NCBI RefSeq assembly: GCF_918797505.1
Contig: NC_092800.1
Span: 7,900,631 to 7,964,630, forward strand
Direction: 5' to 3'
Length of the DNA: 64,000 nucleotides
DNA from: Bemisia tabaci
Taxonomy: Eukaryota; Arthropoda; Insecta; Hemiptera; Aleyrodidae
The notes below the pieces were generated by a model, which was given only the letters and a program-made list of their open reading frames with translations, was not told the origin of the DNA and did not search any database. This document shows, piece by piece, positions 22,361 to 61,880 of the stretch (the stretch's first letter is position 1; the number at the start of each line of letters is the position of its first letter). Made by a program: the position numbers and the translations under genes.

Positions 22361-22866
22361 TGCCTTGCTAAGGAAAAACGTCGTATGAACATTCAGGTGT
22401 TGCCAAATATCTTAAGATAGAATACGAATTTTCAAGAACATATCGACGGTGAAACTACCAAACCACGTATCTCGGTTTGCGACGTCGCAGACTTCCTGTC
22501 ATACTTTATTTTTTAATTGAAAAACTACTTAACGCCCAGTCTTGAAAATTTCTGTGATTTTTCCTCTTCGTGCGGAGAAAATTCTGTGAAAATTTCAAGG
22601 AATGATATTGATTTGGTCTACTTCAAAAAAATAAAATGCGAGCGTAGATTTTTAAACACCGCAAACGAGATACGTGGTTTGGTAGTTTCACCGTCGATAT
22701 GTTAATATTTTTTCTCCAATTTTTCAGATAACTCAGTTGGCAATTTCACCTAAACCTCCTGAAATTTCAAGGAAAAATATTCATAGCTTTCCTCAAATTA
22801 AACCTTTTATTGAAGGAAATTTGGCAATTCTCGAATGTACATACGGCGTTTTTCCTTAGCACGGCA
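22361..22866. mobile_element. MITE family A copy interrupted by a family C insertion
   Basis: The A left end (TGCCTTGCTAAGGAAAAACG) runs to 22439 and the A right part resumes at 22702 and ends TTTTTCCTTAGCACGGCAG. Between them sits a complete family C element. Confidence 0.8.
22440..22701. mobile_element. MITE family C, complete copy nested in family A
   Basis: Family C is about 262 bp with long inverted ends: TATCGACGGTGAAACTACCA and AACCACGTATCTCGGTTTGC on the left, their complements on the right. Other copies are at 32421-32676, 46493-46760 and 58051-58310, with partial ones at 8998-9200, 11050-11276, 38705-38790 and 59400-59475. Confidence 0.85.
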
Positions 22867-25124: not shown

Positions 25125-25292
25125 CAGTGGCGTGGCGTGCTTTGCGATGTATCGGTTGATCTGCCATTTAAACCTATGGAAAAGGATCGATTAACAGGGT
25201 GTTCGCAACGAACACCTTAATGAGCAATTCTTTACCATAGCTTCAAATGGAAGATATCGATAATCGATCATTTACTCTTTTCTTCGCCACTG
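25125..25292. mobile_element. hAT-like MITE, family B copy 1
   Basis: Termini CAGTGGCG and CGCCACTG, flanked by the 8-bp duplication CAGGAGCC / CAGGAGCA. The body carries inverted GATCGATTAACAGGGTGTTC and GCGAACACC words. An 8-bp target duplication with CAGTG-type ends is the hAT signature. Confidence 0.85.
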
Positions 25293-32420: not shown

Positions 32421-32676
32421 TATCAACGGTGTGAGTCGTGAATCCCATAACTCGGTTTGCGACGTCGCAGATTTTCTCGTCATACTTTATTTTTTAAACA
32501 CAAAACTACTCAACGGCAATTCTTTAAAACTGCCGTGATTTTTCCTCTCTGCGCGAAGAAAATTTTGCATAAACTTCAAGGAATGATGTCAATTTGTTCT
32601 CCTTTAAAAAAATAACATAGAGGCGGAGATTTTCAGATACCGCAAATGAGTTATGTGATTTTCGACCTACACCGTG
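32421..32676. mobile_element. MITE family C, diverged copy
   Basis: The left part reads TATCAACGGTGTGAGTCGTG with CTCGGTTTGCGACGTCGCAG; the right end is degraded (GTTATGTGATTTTCGACC). Confidence 0.65.
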
Positions 32677-46015: not shown

Positions 46016-46492
46016 GAAAAAAAGCCTCTAACCGCCGGAGAACCACAATGTGAGGGCACGGTGCTTTTATAATCTCACAAAGATGAGCTATGATCATCAA
46101 CTTCAAAGCCATCCCAAACGATCACTCTCATCAATATATCCGAACATCCTGAACATCCTGAGCATTATGAGAAACGTTAGTTCGAATCCATCAAATATTA
46201 ATATGAAGACGGATTCATCATTCCTCGTCCGAAGAATCAGGACTTATCGCACTTCATCCTTTTTCTTGCGAAACTCATATATAATGCACGTGCTTTTCAT
46301 TTCGCTTTTAGCTATTTATTAAGCAACTAAAGGCAAATATTTATACATTCCGCCTCGGACTAAGCGCAATTACTTAGTGAACTGAGGGCAATACCCCCAA
46401 AGGGCACTGTTTCCGCTTATCTTAGACCTATAAATATGGCATTTCGGCTCAATTTTGAAGTATTGGAAAATGGGCATTGGACGATAAATCTA

Positions 46493-46760
46493 TATCGACG
46501 GTGAAAACCCCAAACCACGTATCTCTTTACCGGTGTTTAAAAATCTCCGCTGCTGTTTCATTTTCTTAAAAAAGAACAAACCATTCTCTTTCACATTCCT
46601 TGAAGTTTTCTCAGAATTTCCTATGTACGGATAAGAAAAATCACGGAAGTTTTTTTTAGAATTGATATTAAGTACCTCTTAATATGAAAAAGAAAGTATG
46701 ACAGGTAGTCTGCAACGTCGCAAACCGAGATACGTGGCTTTGGAGTTTGACCATCGATAT
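46493..46760. mobile_element. MITE family C copy
   Basis: TATCGACGGTGAAAACCCCA on the left, CCGAGATACGTGGCTTTGGA then CCATCGATAT on the right. Confidence 0.75.
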
Positions 46761-51879: not shown

Positions 51880-53000
51880 TACATGAGAAATCTAAATGTT
51901 ACATTTCATTTACGGTTGATGCAAAAACTGCAAATTTCCTTCCTCGCATGATAGAACAGGTGAAGCAATGCATCTTTACAATAAAACACTCTGACAGGTG
52001 ATGCGTTGCACTAGTTCAATCAAAGACAGTTGTTTTGCAACAGTCTTGTTGCAAGGTGCGTGTAATAATATGTGTAAGTTGGAAGTCGAACATATTAGTA
52101 CTTTTTTATACCAGTTAACTAAATTATACGATCAAAATGGGGCCTCAGAAATTTAAGCATACGGTAGACAAGCTATTTTAAACTGTCAAATAAAAAATGC
52201 ACGAATTTTAGCAACTTAAAGAAAAAAATAAACAAAGCTTCCAATTATTTCATAAAAAAAATAAAATAAAATCACACTTGATTCGGTTTCTTATTATTGC
52301 ACATTTTGTTTATATGATAGTGTATCGGTTGTTTTGGATGAATAATTGGCTCTCTTAAGAATGAATCGTCAAGTGTAGTGCGAGTAAAAATTTAGAGTTA
52401 CACAGTACACTTAACCACTTCTAAGACGGGATGAGATACCTTTAATTGAAACATTATATTTCTTGCTGAATTTGCTGCAAATTTTCAGGTTGTATCCTCT
52501 CGACGAGTAAAGCTATCGCAGTCATATTTCGAGAGGTTGAATTCTTGGAGTTTGAAAAATCAAAGTCAAAGCCTTGATAGACATCGGTACTCGTGTTTGG
52601 AAATAAATAAGTTGTTCCTAAATTAATCGTTTAATCGTGTGTTCGGTTACTCAGAAAAAAAGTCAGACACTAATTTACTGGGCCCAAGGAGCCTTTTAAC
52701 AAGTCTGATTATTTCTACACCTGATCTTCCCCTCCTTCTCTTCTTATCCCTGTGAAAATGGCGGATCGAGAGGGTGATAAAAAAGGGGGAACTTTGGGAC
52801 ACCCCCCCCCCTCTTTAATCGAGTGGAATAAATCAGAGCCCCCCCCCCTCTCCCACCAGGATAATTTTGAAAACTCAACTGCTACTAAAGATTGATATTG
52901 ATGGAAATTCAGCTTTTGAGATTTACATTTCTTGATAAAAATTGAAGGGATTTGCCCCTTCACTTGATATTTCACTGCGGAGAGAACGAATAACAAAAAG
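51880..53000. other. no supported gene
   Basis: AT-rich, with C-rich runs at 52801-52812 and 52838-52850. The minus frames 52715-53059 and 52923-53240 overlap family N and look spurious. Confidence 0.4.
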
Positions 53001-53562: not shown

Positions 53563-53726
53563 CAATGGCGAGGCGTGAATGCTCGATTATTGATATGTCT
53601 CCATTTCATGCTATGGTAAAGAATCCATCATTAAAGTGTTCGTTGCATACACCCTGTTCTACGATCCTTTTCCATTGGTGTAAACGGCAAATCAATCGAT
53701 ACGCCTTAACTCACGCCACGCCATTG
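53563..53726. mobile_element. hAT-like MITE, family B copy 6, 75 bp upstream of the pectinesterase ATG
   Basis: CAATGGCGAGGCGTG on the left, CACGCCACGCCATTG on the right, 8-bp flanks CAAAAACC / CAAAAAAC. It occupies the position where a proximal promoter or 5' UTR would be expected. Confidence 0.82.
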
Positions 53727-53801
53727 CAAAAAACTAGTGACTAATTAGTTGTTAGACCAGCGACGCAACTAAATAAATTAACTCTTTTCACTCTAGTTAC
53801 G

Positions 53802-54629
53802 ATGCATTACACCAACAGCAGATCATCAATATCAAATGCGCTCCCATTGTCCATCACATGTTTATTGGTCCTACACTCGACTGGCATCACAGAAGCAACA
53901 ATATGGACTCACGAAGCAGATCTTCAAATAGCGCAGAAAACCTGCGAAAATGCACGCTTTCCACTCCTCTGCATCTCGACATTGACTTCATTCCCGAATC
54001 TTGCCTCAAAATCCATACCACAGATGATCCGCTCTGTTCTCAACCATACCGTACACGAGGTCCATTCCTGTTCACACGACTGTGTTCATATAAAAAAGAA
54101 CCACCAAACCCTCGCCAATACCGAGCAGATAGCACTCGATGATTGCATACACTTGTTCGATGACACCAACTCGACACTGAGGACCGCTATTGCTGACCTC
54201 GAGCGAAATGAATTGGGCGACCTGCAGACCGCCCTCAGTAGAGCGATGACCAACTTAGGTACATGCCTAGAGAGCCTGGCTCATTGCGATAAGAACAAGC
54301 TTAGGGAGGAGGTTTCATTCGAGACTTTCTAAGCTCTCTAACCATGTTAGTAATTCACTGGCGATGCTGCATAAAGTGCCAAATTTGGGAGCCCCACAAA
54401 ATCTGAGGTGTTTCCGGAGTACGGGGAAATGAAAGGGGAGTTTCCGGAATGGTTGTCCGACTTAGATCGGAGGTCACTCACGTCACATGGTCCGCCGCGA
54501 GGCCATGGTCCACGCAAAAGTCTAAAGGCTGGTCCGGCATTCGATATTGTGGTGGCTCAAGATGGAAGTGGGGAGGTTTAAAACTGTGTGGGAGGCTATC
54601 AATGCGGCACCCGCCAACAACCGGAACAG
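53802..54629 (+). CDS. pectinesterase exon 1: signal peptide, PMEI domain and start of PME domain (with frame breaks)
   Basis: The ATG at 53802 is followed by a hydrophobic segment (ALPLSITCLLVLHS), a signal peptide. The PMEI domain then shows its typical Cys spacing: CENARFPLLC near residue 47, ALDDCIHLFDD near 112 and NLGTCLESL near 152. The frame stops at 54330, but the domain continues one frame over (KLSNHVSNSLAMLHKVP, 54331 on), returns to the first frame by 54405 (FPEWLSDLDRR, 54441 on, the classic PME linker; then DIVVAQDGSG), and shifts again at about 54576 into FKTVWEAINAAP. The exon ends AG|GTGAG at 54629. An upstream acceptor-like tract (TTTTCACTCTAG) sits just before the ATG, so a noncoding 5' exon is possible. 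The breaks remove no conserved block, which fits recent decay or assembly error. Confidence 0.8.
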
Positions 54630-57600
54630 GTGAGTTCCATTTTATATGCAAGAATTTGTTTATTTATAATTGAATGATGTCGCGCAGAAATCGCTAATGT
54701 CCATTTTTCAACTTTTAAGTATACTTTTCAAGAGTTGTTATAATCGTGAGTGTGGGGCAATGACTGATTTCGGGAATAAAATAATCCTAAAACGAATATT
54801 AGCATCGTTTTCATGGTTGCATCTAACTACGAAAAGATTATCAACCCAAAAAACTCAAGACTGAAAAAATGTTGTAGAAAGTTGGAAAAATAGACATTAG
54901 CTGTTTTTGCACGGCACGATTCAATTCGGAACAAATATTAAATATGTAGTCCTCTTTAATTCCTATGGTTAAAATTGACCACTAGACAAGGTACGACTTT
55001 AAGCATTCTAATACATATTTTTTAACCAGAATTTCACCTAGAACACGATTCTTGCATCGAAAATTACTGAATCAACTCCTAACTAAGATATTAACGTTTG
55101 TCGTTTTTATTTTACCCACAGTGACAGAAAGCTTTCGTATACGAAATTCTGACTCAATTTGTTCATAATAAACTGAAACTTTCGGCTGATACAACGATTA
55201 TTTTGTTACCCGTATTGGGTAGTATAAATGGACCACTTCAAGCCGAATGGAACCAACCCACATCAGCTATTGCCAAATTTATTTGAGCAATTTAATTTCT
55301 TACATGAAAACGGTTGTGCGGATTATTGTGCAAATGTCAGTGAATTTTCTGCACAGTACGAAGCAAATTCTTTTAACATTTTCAAAAAAATCCGTACAAA
55401 AGCTCTCTTGCAAAAAATTAATTACCCAGCTAAAATTGGCAATGACTGATGTGGTTTGGTTCCTTCCTGCTGAACGCAGTCCAAGTATGCTGTTATTGCT
55501 GTGAAGAATGAGAGCTGTTATTTTTTCTTGTTCTGGCTAATTGTGAAGGTTCACGATATACATTAAGGCCGGAGTGTACTGGGAAACTCCATGGGTCGTC
55601 AAGACTAAAATTAATCTGATGCTGGTTGGTGATGGAATTGGGAAAACTATTCTTAGAGGTTCTAAAAATGTCAAGGATGGGACGACAACATTCAATTCAG
55701 CTACTTTCGGTGCGTTTAGTTCCAGTTTCCAAAGTTAATAATGTGACGTTTGTGTGTCAGTGGCGTGGCGTGCTTCGCGATAAATCACTTGATCTGCCAT
55801 TTAAAGCTATGAAAAAGTATAGATAAACAGAATGTTCGTAACGAACACCTTGATAATCGATTCTTTACCATGGCATCAAATGGGGAAATCGTCACCTCCC
55901 GGCCAAAGCGCCATGCGACGTTTCATAATTTCCGTTGCCATTTTATTTTTTACAGAGGAATTGTTCAACAAAGCTGTCCGAAAGTTCTCTGAATTTTCTT
56001 TGTGCTGCCGATGAAATTTAGTGAATTATTCAACCGATTCAACGAACAAATTTTTCTGTAAAAAAATGAAATGGCGGTGAAAATTTTAAACGTCGCACAG
56101 TGGATGGAGTCAATTAGAAAGCGGACATCAACTTTAGACTTAAACTGAAAATCTTTATGTTTATTATGCAACATTTTAAACTTTAAGGGATGCTTAATAA
56201 AGTAAATTTCACGAGGAAACCAATGGAACGACTTTTAGAACCTCAAAGTTGTGTTTGAACGGAGTTATACGTTTAAAAATTCCAAATTTTGTCCGACATC
56301 TCCAATTGACTCGATCCATTGTGCGTCGCATGACGCTTGTGATACTTTGGCCGGAAGGTAACGAAATATCGGATAGGATATTCTATCACTCACGCCTCGC
56401 CACTGACGTAATAAACTCAACAGGTATACGTATTGGACTTTCTGTAGTGAATGTTTATTTACCTAATCTTGTAGGTGCCTTGGTATTATTTTAAACAGTG
56501 CGTTCTCTCTTGTTTTGTGCGGCTAAATATGAAGGTATACGATATACATAAAGGCCGGAGTTTACGTGGAAAATCCATGGGTCCCCAAGGAGAAAATAAA
56601 TCTGATGCTGGTCGGAGATGGAATCGGGAGGACTATTTTAAAGGGTAGTAAAAATGTTGTGGATGGATCAACCACTTTCACATCAGCCACTCTCGGTGCG
56701 TTCCGCTCAAATTTCCTGAAATACTTTTCATCGTGTTTCTTTCATATTTTCTATAGACGATTTTAGTGGTGACGTCACGGAGCGATATTGGTGGTTTGAT
56801 ATCTCGAAAGTCGAAATGTGCCCCAACAAACAAACAAACAAACAAACATAACCTCCAAAATGAACAATTGACGAAATAATGCTAAAACTAGCCTGAAACC
56901 AAACAATTAATCCATGGGACTTTAATATTATGAAAGCTACTCATTTACCAAAACGTTGAGATCACAATCACAAGAATTGATTGTAAAATAAACTCATAAT
57001 ATCATAGACAGTCATCGAGCGAATTCCCTACACCCCCCCCCCCCCCTGCCTATATCCCGCAGATTCCTCCATGTTCGTTTGTTGGGGCACGTTTCGACTT
57101 TCGAGGTATAAAAATTATAACGAGATGTGACGTCACACTAAATGCGTCTATTGTAATTGACTCATTCACATGTCATTCATTTTAAATGCCAGGGACTCGT
57201 CTTTATTTTGAAGAAGGGACGATTGAGTGGATTTTCTGACGTTTTTAGTTTTCAGCATTATAAACTTATACAGAACAATTATGAAGAAAATTCAGTAAAA
57301 GTTTTAACGGACTCCACACATTTGCTTTATTTACAGAGGATGAAACTTTAACGCATATCCTTAGATACCGCAACCGAGAAAAACCCTCTCTGTACTCAGC
57401 GAATTAATTGATTGGAAATTTCAAAGCTGGGCCTTAACTCTTACCTCTGTCTTTCCGCGAGAGGTCGTTTTGGTAAATTGCACCTCGTAATTTCAGTTTA
57501 AATGCCACCTATCTTTTCTTTTACCGAAGATATTTTTTTTTTTTTTTTTTTTTTTTTTTGGAGCACTAAAATATCAGTTACGGGCTATACAGACATACCG

Positions 57601-57991
57601 TTCGTTCCGGGCTCTAAGTTCCGGGTGCTGGAGCCGTCGTTTCAATTGCTGCAGGTGCTACGCCCGGAACTTTCGGTCTCTGAACCCGGAACGCGGACGG
57701 TGTGTCTACATAGGCTACTAGTTCCAAAGTGTACAATGTCCATAAAAGCGATTCGTCACAAAAACGCAATATAACTGCTTTGGGTACTGTCCGTTTTGCT
57801 GCGGCCTACCTTCTTAATACTGCTAATTAAAAAGGATTTTGGCTGTTTTGGCACACAATTAAATTACTTTCCGATTCTTCTTAATGACTGATCAAAAATC
57901 CACTCCTAACTCAATTTCGACCAAACTGGACATTGTACTCTTTGAAACTAGTAACCTCAGTAGCCCCTCCCTTTTATGGCTTCCCCGCCGA

Positions 57992-58030
<39 letters not shown>

Positions 58031-59057
58031 CATTTTGGCAAGTTTAAGAATATCGACGGTGAAACTACCAGACCACGTATCTCGATTTGCGACGTTGTAG
58101 ACTTCCTGTCATTCTTTATTTTTTAATGAGAAAACTACTCAACGTCAATTCTCGAAAACTTTCATATTTTTTCCTCTCTGTGGGGAGAAAACTCTGTGAA
58201 AATTTCAAGAAATAATATTGATTCGTATTCCCTCAAAAAAATATAATGGGAGCGGAGATTTTTAAACATCGCAAACGAGATACGTGTTCGTGTAGTTTCA
58301 CCGTCGATATGCTTTCATCAAGTCACTATATTTCCCAGCGTTAACGTAAATCCTTCTTTCAGCTGTAATCGGTAACGGCTTTATCGCCAGAGGCATAACC
58401 TTCGAGAACGTGGCTGGCTCCGTGAAGCACCAAGCCGTGGCGGTGCGGAACAGCGCCGACATGTCCGTCTTCTACCAATGCGCCTTCCTCGGCTTCCAAG
58501 ACACCCTCTACACCCACGCCGGCCGCCAGTTCTACCGGGAGTGCCAGGTCGCCGGCACGATCGACTTCATATTCGGCGACGCCGCCGCCGTCTTCCAGAA
58601 CTGCGACATCATCGTCCGCAAACCTGATCCCTCCCAGACCAACGTCATCACCGCCCAGGGTCGCGAGGACCCTCGTTCCAACACCGGGATCTCCATTATC
58701 AACTGCAAGATCTACGCCGGGGCGGATTTGGCACCTGTCAAGGCGCAGTTCAAAACCTACCTGGGTCGCCCCTGGAAGATGTTCTCGCGGACGGTGTTCA
58801 TGAAGTCCTTCATCGACGATCTGATCAACCCTGCCGGGTGGCTGGAATGGGATAAGGGGTTCGCCTTGACGACGCTGTATTACGGGGAGTATCAGAATAC
58901 GGGGCCAGGGTCGAATACGGCCGGGAGGGTCAAGTGGTCCGGGTACAGGGTGATTACTAATGAACAGGAGGCTGGGATGTTCACCGTGGATAAGTTCATA
59001 GCGGGGAATACGTGGTTGCAATGGACTGGTGTTCCCTTCTTTCCTTGGTTAAGTTAA
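53802..59057 (+). CDS. plant-type pectinesterase (PMEI-PME, type I), horizontally acquired; frame-broken first exon and duplicated exon
   Basis: The product would be a secreted pectin methylesterase (carbohydrate esterase family 8) that removes methyl esters from plant cell-wall homogalacturonan, preceded by a signal peptide and a PMEI-like pro-domain. The exons are 53802-54629, then either 55549-55709 or 56535-56695, then 58363-59057. Splice junctions are GT-AG and phases agree (2, then 1). The coding total is about 560 residues, the usual size of plant type-I PMEs. Catalytic motifs are all visible: GVYxE, QAVAVR, FQDTLY, DFIFG and YLGRPWK. As assembled the first exon has at least three frame breaks (near 54330, 54395 and 54576), so this copy is either a pseudogene or carries sequencing indels; the last exon is fully intact. 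The PMEI+PME fusion is known from plants, not animals. Its introns contain MITE families shared with the rest of this insect contig, so it is integrated here. Confidence 0.85.
55226..55487. mobile_element. MITE family K copy in pectinesterase intron
   Basis: Ends AATGGACCACTTCAAGCCGA and its degraded complement (CTGCTGAACGCAGTCC), with family blocks GCTATTGCCAAATTTATTTG and CAGTGAATTTTCTGCACAGT. Confidence 0.68.
55549..55709 (+). CDS. pectinesterase alternative exon 3a (161 nt)
   Basis: A pyrimidine-rich tract and a GAAG acceptor precede, and a CG|GTGCGT donor follows. The exon encodes FTIYIKAGVYWETPWV and MLVGDGIGKTILRGSKNV, the first conserved PME block, with no stop. It enters in phase 2 and leaves in phase 1. 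It differs from exon 3b at 11 of 53 residues by my count. Either copy makes a correct join with exons 1 and 4; using both or neither would break frame. Confidence 0.78.
55758..55912. mobile_element. hAT-like MITE, family B copy 7 (degraded right end), between exons 3a and 3b
   Basis: CAGTGGCGTGGCGTGCTTCG and the family body are clear; the right end is mutated (CACCTCCCGGCC). A further terminal fragment (CACGCCTCGCCACTG) lies at about 56390-56405. Confidence 0.65.
56098..56337. mobile_element. MITE family M copy 2, between exons 3a and 3b
   Basis: CACAGTGGATGGAGTCAATT on the left, GACTCGATCCATTGTGCG on the right, inner TTTCACGAGGAAACCAATGG and AGAACCTCAAAG. Confidence 0.72.
56535..56695 (+). 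CDS. pectinesterase alternative exon 3b (161 nt)
   Basis: Same length, phases and splice signals as exon 3a (GAAG acceptor, CTCG|GTGCGT donor). It encodes YTIYIKAGVYVENPWV and MLVGDGIGRTILKGSKNV. Residues VEN, PKEK and VVDGST look closer to the common plant consensus than those of 3a, so 3b may be the ancestral copy; this is a judgement by eye. The intron sequence just before both copies (a TCTTGTT tract, then GGCTAA and a GAAG acceptor) is also similar, so the duplication included intron sequence. Confidence 0.78.
56768..57148. mobile_element. TGACGTCAC-ended inverted-repeat element in pectinesterase intron
   Basis: GTGACGTCACGGAGCGATAT and TCGAAAGTCGAAATGTGCCC then CAACAAAC on the left are mirrored by GTTTGTTGGGGCACGTTTCG and TGTGACGTCAC on the right. 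Contains a (CAAA)6 run at 56825-56848 and a poly-C run near 57033. Confidence 0.7.
57532..57559 (+). repeat. poly-T tract in pectinesterase intron
   Basis: About 28 T. Confidence 0.8.
57573..57720. mobile_element. palindromic element, copy 2 of the 36138-36342 family
   Basis: TTACGGGCTATACAGACATA, GTTCCGGGCTC and GGGTGCTGGAGCCGT match the other copy; the complement GGAACGCGGACGGTGTGTCT closes the right arm. Confidence 0.65.
57994..58030 (+). repeat. poly-T tract in pectinesterase intron
   Basis: About 36 T directly before a family C element. Confidence 0.8.
58051..58310. mobile_element. MITE family C, complete copy in pectinesterase intron, 52 bp before the last exon
   Basis: TATCGACGGTGAAACTACCA on the left and TAGTTTCACCGTCGATAT on the right; very similar to 22440-22701. 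Confidence 0.85.
58363..59057 (+). CDS. pectinesterase last exon: main PME catalytic domain
   Basis: A TTCTTTCAG acceptor at 58362 opens an uninterrupted frame to the TAA at 59055. Visible active-site blocks are QAVAVR (58431-58448, oxyanion Gln), QDTLY (58497-58511, second Gln and general-acid Asp), DFIFG (58563-58577, nucleophilic Asp) and YLGRPWK (58758-58778, substrate Arg/Trp). The C-terminus ends TWLQWTGVPFFPWLS, as in full-length plant enzymes. The exon is clearly richer in G and C than its surroundings, and intact, in contrast to exon 1. The first frame codon after the split one is at 58365. A long open frame on the opposite strand is only its shadow. Confidence 0.9.
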
Positions 59058-60714: not shown

Positions 60715-61880
60715 AAGTTAGCATACCATTTTTTAATCATTCCTGGAGAGAGAGAAAATGTGCTGAGCCAAAGACAATAATCTGACCTACACCTTAGGAG
60801 GCCGGCAAACTTGGCTTGTCCAGACTTTTGGCTCCAAAAATACGCAATGGATCACCACGTGATCTAACGCACCAGGCACTGATTATTAAATAAAAAACAC
60901 AAAGTCAAGGGACCCATTCAGACCCAATAGCATGCATCTTCAAAATTAAAAGAATTTACCAAACGAGGCACCGAAATGTCATAATTAATTCGCATCTCTC
61001 TCATTATTTTTCAATTTTCCGTGTCACGTTGCTCGCACTTTTTTTCGGCACGCTTTGGCCAGCGCGTGCTCAGTCAAATATACACAGGTGACAATTATTG
61101 ATGGCTGATGACGCACCTCCTCAGATTACAGAAAGTCAACACTAAGCTGTTCATTCATGGTTGCTATATATTGATCCATGTGATCCAACCCGCAATTGCT
61201 ATTTCTAATTCAATCTTTTTCGCACATTTGTTTCGACATGCCTCCCGATTTTCAGGATCAGTATTGCAGATTGTGACCCTATTTAAATGAAAATTAATTT
61301 TTCGAATTAATGTTTACACAGTTGCTTCTGTCTTCTCCCGATCCGAGTCCTCGCGCATGCTAATAGTTCCGCGTCCCGGTTTTGTGCGGGAAAAATATCC
61401 GATATAGCCCCGTGAGACATGAGTCAGTTCATATTCATACATTATTCATAGGTGTCCCGATGGATTTTACATCGCAGTTGTGTACATATCGCGGTGAGAT
61501 TGGTTCACTAATACTTATTCTTCTCACGGTAAGTCACTTTTACTTCAAGTAGTTTTTCTTGTCATTGAGAGCTGGTGACAATGGATTAGCTGTCGAAGAC
61601 ATTTAAATCTCTTATCATGTAAAAAAAAAATATTCAAAGCATTAAAGAGATTATTGTTTTCCATTCACCCTATTTCACTATACGCAAATTTTTGCGAATG
61701 GGTGTGATCTCATTTTTCAACCAGATCGGAAGGATGGCAAGCCAAAAGAAAAAAATACTCTGCTGAAGTTAAGGACTAAATTTAGTTGCTTGATGGATTG
61801 TACCCAACGTTTGTATCCATCTACTTTTCAACCCACCATGAATTTTGGATGTGGTGGTCGCTATTGCTATCAACATGAAA
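60715..61880. other. no supported gene
   Basis: AT-rich; nothing was recognised. Confidence 0.4.

What the first reader, a model, noticed from the sequence alone, without database searches (positions are those of the whole stretch)
53802..59057. Plant-type PMEI-PME pectinesterase embedded in an insect contig (horizontal transfer from plant)
Seen: signal peptide, PMEI domain with its Cys pattern, the FPEWLS linker, and all PME catalytic motifs, split into exons whose introns carry MITE families A/B/C/K/M also found in and around an animal MARVEL gene. Known: the PMEI+PME fusion is a plant architecture, the pectinesterases of beetles are of bacterial type without PMEI, and plant-derived genes have been reported in Bemisia tabaci. 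Inferred: a plant gene was acquired by a sap-feeding insect and could loosen pectin along the stylet path.
Basis: partly seen in the sequence, partly recalled or inferred. Interest (0 to 1): 0.92.

Follow-up and report, generated by a model that had tools for sequence, protein, structure and literature searches.

The report
Plant pectin enzyme gene in whitefly
The whitefly Bemisia tabaci carries, inside one of its own chromosomes, a pair of genes for a pectin-softening enzyme that came from a plant; the transfer is already published, but this copy indicates that the plant introns came along and that one exon was later duplicated.

Summary
The window lies in a 610-Mb assembly; its exon 3 is 228/231 identical to 'pectinesterase-like isoform X3 [Bemisia tabaci]'. 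It is very probably the CE8 pair Bta11221/Bta11222 reported as acquired from a plant (Colinet et al. 2025, PMC11800479, section 9). Added here: (1) the two introns flanking exon 2 sit where plant relatives have introns, so intron-bearing DNA, not processed cDNA, was probably transferred; (2) exon 2 is duplicated in gene 1, both copies open with splice signals; at 161 nt each only one fits in frame, so mutually exclusive use is predicted, not shown; (3) the PMEI exon of gene 1 has three frame breaks in this assembly, while the RefSeq model is open: recent loss or assembly error; (4) a second, intact gene starts at 61460 and runs past the window; no further PME or PMEI match was found in the genome. 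A legume donor fits best in likelihood but is not established; one of two trees puts the whitefly proteins beside, not inside, the sampled plants. The MARVEL gene is not confirmed.

The parts
52001..52055 (+). Gene 1, 5' coding exon of the RefSeq isoform X3 model; GT donor at 52056
   Evidence: tblastn of P0124, 18/18 residues at 52001-52054; splice context
53797..54629 (+). Gene 1, exon 1: Met at 53802, PMEI domain, linker and first part of the PME domain; AG acceptor, GTGAGT donor. Three frame breaks in this assembly between about 54.29 and 54.58 kb
   Evidence: PF04043 E 2.7e-19; frames; P0124 alignment; borders
55549..55709 (+). Gene 1, exon 2a (extra copy), open, AG acceptor and GT donor
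   Evidence: 78% nt identity over 196 nt to the other copy; 78% aa identity to P0124; borders
56535..56695 (+). Gene 1, exon 2b, the copy used in RefSeq isoform X3
   Evidence: 54 of 54 residues found in P0124; borders
58363..59057 (+). Gene 1, exon 3: catalytic part of the PME domain with the active-site residues, stop codon included
   Evidence: PF01095 E 4.2e-107; 228/231 to P0124; residues
61460..61528 (+). Gene 2 (intact paralogue), first coding exon; the other exons lie beyond the window (L006:3682-3930, L006:8441-8992, L007:2413-2577, L007:4744-5442)
   Evidence: tblastn of P0167, 24/26 at 61460-61537; other exons; GTAAGT donor
55758..55889 (.). Interspersed repeat in the intron between exons 2a and 2b
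   Evidence: Relatives at 53595-53726, 25125-25250 and others
58046..58314 (.). MITE-like inverted repeat in the intron before exon 3
   Evidence: the repeat finder I5; relatives at 22440-22701 (85%), 32448-32657 and 46492-46760

Best explanation
This is gene 1 of a tandem pair of plant-type (group 2, PMEI-PME) pectin methylesterase genes of the whitefly Bemisia tabaci, most likely acquired once from a flowering plant as intron-bearing DNA and then duplicated. Shown here: domain families, plant affinity, place on the chromosome, introns at plant positions, tandem paralogue, duplicated exon 2, frame breaks in this copy. Inferred: the intact protein is secreted, its PMEI part acts as a folding or inhibitory pro-region that is removed, and the PME part demethylesterifies plant pectin during feeding. 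Also inferred: one of the two exon-2 copies is chosen per transcript, because exon 1 ends in phase 2, exon 3 begins in phase 1 and each copy is 161 nt, so only transcripts with exactly one copy keep the frame. In the individual assembled here gene 1 may not make a full protein, while gene 2 is open.
For: Species: P0124 (578 aa, named isoform X3 [Bemisia tabaci]) matches exon 3 at 228/231, exon 2b at 54/54 and its 5' exon at 18/18; P0167 (570 aa, B. tabaci) matches gene 2 at 92-98% over five exon segments. PF01095: 5 matches of 7 candidates in the assembly; PF04043: 2 of 2; all in this pair (the tool calls counts of large families lower bounds). Plant origin: 100/100 split of 49 plants plus 2 whitefly rows from 12 bacteria; whitefly pair 98/96 in the full-length tree. 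Introns: of the 120 proteins listed, 95 are under 300 aa, and 76 of these 95 begin homology at P0130 residues 316-320; where the match starts at Ala318 with a residue before it, that residue is S, A, T or P in 47 of 48, as read-through of NCAG| in phase 1 gives. Of the 110 proteins new (9 more of its 119 hits were listed earlier and not examined), 49 end homology at 263-269; in the 47 that could be read, Arg264 is followed by Y or F in 24 (which coding sequence would also give, so not telling) and by stop, Q, S, L, H or C in 23, all as read-through of AG|GT or AG|GC in phase 2 gives; 24 of 110 end at 316-317. P0242 reads through both introns, showing one plant-type gene with both. The Morus model P0157 carries an insertion exactly at the second site. 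Both whitefly genes have borders and phases at these two sites. Exon 2a/2b: dN 0.175, dS 0.617; 7 of 2000 random placements gave as few amino-acid-changing differences, 1422 of 2000 gave a stop. Literature: Colinet et al. 2025, section 9 in full.
Against: No reads, transcripts or assays were available. As assembled, this copy does not encode the full protein. In the tree with bacteria the two whitefly proteins do not pair and the 49 plants form a group without them at 85/85; the nested place depends on a root that I set on five plant rows, and the tool warns that long branches meet. Plant introns were inferred from proteins called on unspliced DNA, not from plant genomic sequence. Nothing that I read shows this protein in saliva.
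Confidence: 0.92

Rival explanations
1. Plant contamination or a chimeric contig: plant DNA assembled into an insect contig.
For: The protein is plant-like, up to 72% identical to Arachis over exon 3.
Against: 99% match over exon 3 to a B. tabaci RefSeq record, repeats of the window inside all four introns examined, two diverged tandem genes 7.9 Mb inside a 47.5-Mb contig, and conserved synteny in MED and SSA reported by Colinet et al..
Confidence: 0.01
2. Gene 1 is a pseudogene in this lineage: real frame-breaking changes have killed the copy, gene 2 alone is active, and exon 2a may be a relic.
For: Three frame breaks within about 0.3 kb of the PMEI exon and none seen in gene 2's five exon segments; no second copy of this PMEI exon by profile search.
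Against: Exon 2b is identical to the RefSeq protein over 54 residues, exon 3 differs at 3 of 231, and PMEI residues 51-169 differ at one, so loss would be very recent; exon 2a is open with splice signals.
Confidence: 0.38
3. The frame breaks are assembly errors and gene 1 is intact in the animal.
For: The RefSeq B. tabaci model has the same exon open, and the neighbouring exons are highly conserved.
Against: Gene 2, about 1.7 kb of coding sequence in the same assembly, shows none; no reads available.
Confidence: 0.58
4. Two independent transfers, or one transfer of a plant tandem pair.
For: P0167 is no closer to gene 1 (69% over exon 3) than Arachis is (72%); in the tree with bacteria the two do not pair.
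Against: 98/96 for one whitefly clade in the full-length tree (long branches meet, so with caution), adjacent places, and the same conclusion in Colinet et al..
Confidence: 0.13

Closest known systems
Bemisia tabaci MEAM1 Bta11221 / Bta11222 (CE8, event BtaV24; Colinet et al. 2025, PMC11800479)
   Same: Tandem pair of PMEI-PME genes of plant origin with conserved active-site residues; very probably the same locus (identifiers could not be matched letter by letter).
   Different: The paper's main text has 0 hits for intron, splic and isoform; intron positions, duplicated exon 2 and frame breaks in this assembly are described here. Its supplements were not open to me.
RefSeq 'pectinesterase-like isoform X3 [Bemisia tabaci]' (P0124) and 'pectinesterase-like [Bemisia tabaci]' (P0167)
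   Same: Gene 1 and gene 2: 228/231 over exon 3, and 92-98% per exon segment.
   Different: P0124 is open through the PMEI exon and uses exon 2b; the window breaks frame there and also carries exon 2a.
Plant PME/PMEI 39/40-like group 2 pectin methylesterases (for example Arachis stenosperma P0130)
   Same: Domain order, catalytic residues, and introns at the same two sites in relatives.
   Different: 72% identical over exon 3, 61% over the whole P0124; the linker of gene 1 is about 12 residues longer.
Bacterial-type PMEs of beetles and plant-parasitic nematodes (recalled; mentioned in PMC11800479 section 9)
   Same: CE8 enzymes gained by plant-feeding animals.
   Different: Of bacterial origin; without PMEI (recalled).

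Membership tests
CE8 pectin methylesterase (PF01095) | Significant match to the family profile | tested here: met
   E 4.2e-107, 357.8 bits against a cut-off of 27
CE8 pectin methylesterase (PF01095) | Catalytic Gln113, Gln135, Asp136, Asp157, Arg225 of carrot PME (numbers recalled) | tested here: met
   All identical in exon 3
CE8 pectin methylesterase (PF01095) | Demethylesterifies pectin | not testable with these tools
   No assay
Group 2 plant PME (PMEI-PME fusion) | PMEI domain (PF04043) N-terminal to the PME domain in one gene | tested here: met
   PF04043 E 2.7e-19 in exon 1; P0124 and P0167 are listed with both domains
Group 2 plant PME (PMEI-PME fusion) | One uninterrupted reading frame across the fusion in this copy | tested here: not met
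   Three frame breaks in exon 1; the RefSeq model and gene 2 are open
Plant-to-whitefly horizontal transfer | Protein groups with land-plant proteins, apart from bacterial ones | tested here: met
   100/100, though beside rather than inside the sampled plants there; fungal and beetle PMEs were not in the tree
Plant-to-whitefly horizontal transfer | Integrated in the animal chromosome | tested here: met
Mutually exclusive exons | Tandem homologous exons, both open with splice signals, lengths that forbid joint use | tested here: met
Mutually exclusive exons | Transcripts that contain one or the other copy | not tested
   No RNA data; isoform X3 uses 2b, and isoforms X1 and X2 are only implied by its name

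The most novel reading that the evidence does not exclude
A plant gene that entered an insect with its introns kept them working in the animal and was then remodelled there: exon 2, a plant exon, was duplicated after the gene duplication to give mutually exclusive exons, so that one acquired gene yields two pectin methylesterases with different N-terminal PME segments.
Probability: 0.4. Interest if true: 0.65.

Novelty: already known. Interest (0 to 1): 0.38.

Why it matters
Plant-to-animal gene transfer is rare and whiteflies are its best-known case; how the genes travelled is open. [quoted passage not shown] The gene pair itself is published.

Tried and rejected
Contamination was considered and rejected. 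A bacterial origin was rejected. Reading exon 1 as one open exon was rejected. A third PME gene as source of exon 2a was considered: no further PF01095 match over the threshold, and dN between 2a and 2b (0.175) is below dN of either to gene 2 (0.255, 0.212). Donor: holding the whitefly pair with Fabaceae gave a log-likelihood 8.2 higher than the free search (p-AU 0.701); asterids 17.0 lower (0.178), cucurbits 7.4 lower (0.231), a monocot/magnoliid/basal set 9.2 lower (0.024), Malpighiales 18.2 lower (0.054), a Malvales/Sapindales/Celastrales set 18.2 lower (0.049); a legume is favoured, not shown. A sixth planned test (Arachis alone) did not run for lack of time. Plant rows for the trees (49, 48) were picked by hand from the 229 proteins listed. 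My first pattern count of intron read-through misfiled proteins and was replaced. Gilbert and Maumus 2022 (10.1093/gbe/evac141) is not held, so whether it discusses introns of these genes is unknown to me; Colinet et al. section 5 says that their method added only one plant-derived candidate to those in the literature, so these PMEs were known earlier. A DNA search for a second copy of exon 1 and the genome-wide copy number of an intron repeat were asked for and never answered. Papers: Colinet et al., abstract, sections 5 and 9 in full and passages elsewhere; PMC10933598 and PMC12448838, passages only; the rest, search listings.

Full report
What is there. The window is G000:C8:7900631-7964630, from a 610-Mb assembly of 151 contigs; contig C8 is 47.5 Mb long. 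Exon 3 (58363-59057) gives 231 residues with Pfam Pectinesterase at E 4.2e-107, and the 53802-54332 frame holds PMEI at E 2.7e-19. A protein search scored on exon 3 found 'pectinesterase-like isoform X3 [Bemisia tabaci]' (P0124, 578 aa, 99%) and 'pectinesterase-like [Bemisia tabaci]' (P0167, 570 aa, 69%); among plant rows Arachis stenosperma has the highest identity that I saw, 72%. So the organism is B. tabaci; differences of about 1-8% from the two records suggest another cryptic species or strain, which I could not name.

Gene structure. tblastn of P0124 places a 5' exon at 52001 (18/18), the PMEI exon at 53797-54629, one exon 2 at 56535-56695 (54/54 residues) and exon 3 with 228/231. A second copy of exon 2 lies at 55549-55709; the two copies are 78% identical over 196 nt, which includes only some 35 nt of flank. 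tblastn of P0167 finds gene 2: first exon at 61460 in the window, then L006:3682-3930, L006:8441-8992, L007:2413-2577 and L007:4744-5442, at 92-98% identity, each segment in one open frame. Exon 2 is single there. The genome search gave 5 PF01095 matches of 7 candidates and 2 PF04043 matches of 2, all in these two genes.

Frame breaks. In the window the PMEI exon changes frame three times between about 54.29 and 54.58 kb. The RefSeq model is open there, so intact copies exist. Outside this stretch the match is close: PMEI residues 51-169 differ from P0124 at one place. Without reads I cannot choose between assembly error (my preference, 0.58) and recent loss (0.38).

Plant introns. Many hits look like open frames called on unspliced plant DNA: they run into introns and lose homology at exon borders. 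Of 120 proteins listed, 95 are shorter than 300 aa; 76 of these 95 begin homology at residues 316-320 of Arachis P0130, 49 of them at Ala318 and 24 at 319. Where a residue precedes Ala318 it is Ser, Ala, Thr or Pro in 47 of 48, as read-through of a phase-1 acceptor NCAG| gives; spliced proteins have Val, Phe or Leu there. Of the 110 proteins new, 49 end homology at residues 263-269. In the 47 that could be read, Arg264 is followed by Tyr or Phe in 24, which says little because spliced proteins have Phe or Tyr there too, and some of these run on for two more residues; the other 23 have stop (7), Gln (7), Ser (3), Leu (3), His (2) or Cys (1), all of which fit read-through of AG|GT or AG|GC in phase 2 and none of which speaks against it. 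Another 24 of 110 end at 316-317. P0242 shows both introns in one gene: 28 foreign residues between Arg264 and the next exon, and a second break after SATF. The two whitefly genes have introns at these two places and phases. Two plant introns at plant positions argue that intron-bearing DNA was transferred. I found no statement of this for these genes in print: searches, and 0 hits for 'intron' in the main text of Colinet et al.; Gilbert and Maumus 2022 is not held.

Exon duplication. Exon 1 ends in phase 2 and exon 3 starts in phase 1; each exon 2 copy is 161 nt. Taking none or both breaks the frame; taking one keeps it (borders). Both copies are open with acceptor and donor dinucleotides; pyrimidine-rich stretches upstream were seen by eye. 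They differ at 36 of 162 compared sites (the last two are the donor GT), dN 0.175 and dS 0.617; random placement of as many differences gave as few amino-acid-changing ones in 7 of 2000 trials and stops in 1422. This shows constraint on the pair, not on each copy. dS between genes 1 and 2 is higher (1.04 over exon 3; 1.7 or saturated over exon 2), so the likely order is transfer, gene duplication, exon duplication. A search for mutually exclusive exons with horizontal transfer in insects listed 8 papers, none on this by title and start of abstract.

Phylogeny. With 12 bacterial CE8 proteins, 49 plant rows and both whitefly proteins, plants plus whitefly are apart from bacteria at 100/100; the plants form a group without the whitefly rows at 85/85, and the whitefly rows do not pair. 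Both have long branches. In the full-length tree with 48 plants, rooted by me on five of them, the whitefly proteins pair at 98/96 and lie inside the plants (the tool warns that long branches meet). Holding them with Fabaceae improved the likelihood by 8.2 over the free search, whereas five other placements were 7 to 18 worse, with p 0.024 to 0.231. A legume donor is the best guess only.

Surroundings. All four introns examined and the downstream flank hold stretches that recur elsewhere in the window, for example 58050-58311 with 22440-22701 at 85%. The MARVEL gene of the finding was not confirmed.

How it probably works. From established knowledge of group 2 PMEs (recalled, and in part in Colinet et al. 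section 9): the PMEI part is cut from the active part; the PME part demethylesterifies homogalacturonan, which can then be cut by other enzymes or stiffened by calcium. B. tabaci also has a horizontally acquired PL1_4 pectin lyase (passages of Colinet et al.). Secretion into saliva or gut is inference.

Verdict. Added here are introns at plant positions, a duplicated exon with predicted exclusive use, and the broken state of this copy.

Noticed in passing
L006:3930-8441 (gene 2): Gene 2 has an extra intron of about 4.5 kb inside the PMEI domain that gene 1 lacks; gained or lost after the gene duplication.
   Followed up: no
window 54462-54575: The linker after the PMEI in gene 1 is about 12 residues longer than in the plants, and the place of the plant RRLL/RKLL-type cleavage motif (recalled) reads RRSL (P0167: RRFV); relevant to whether the pro-region is still cut off.
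   Followed up: no
window 58363-59057: GC at third codon positions is 0.80 in exon 3 of gene 1 but 0.41 and 0.44 in exons 2a and 2b: uneven composition within one gene.
   Followed up: no
plant fragments, Arg264 site: Nine of 47 fragments read on with Gln or His, which implies a GC-AG intron at this site in some plants; the whitefly genes have GT donors.
   Followed up: partly
   Followed up: partly
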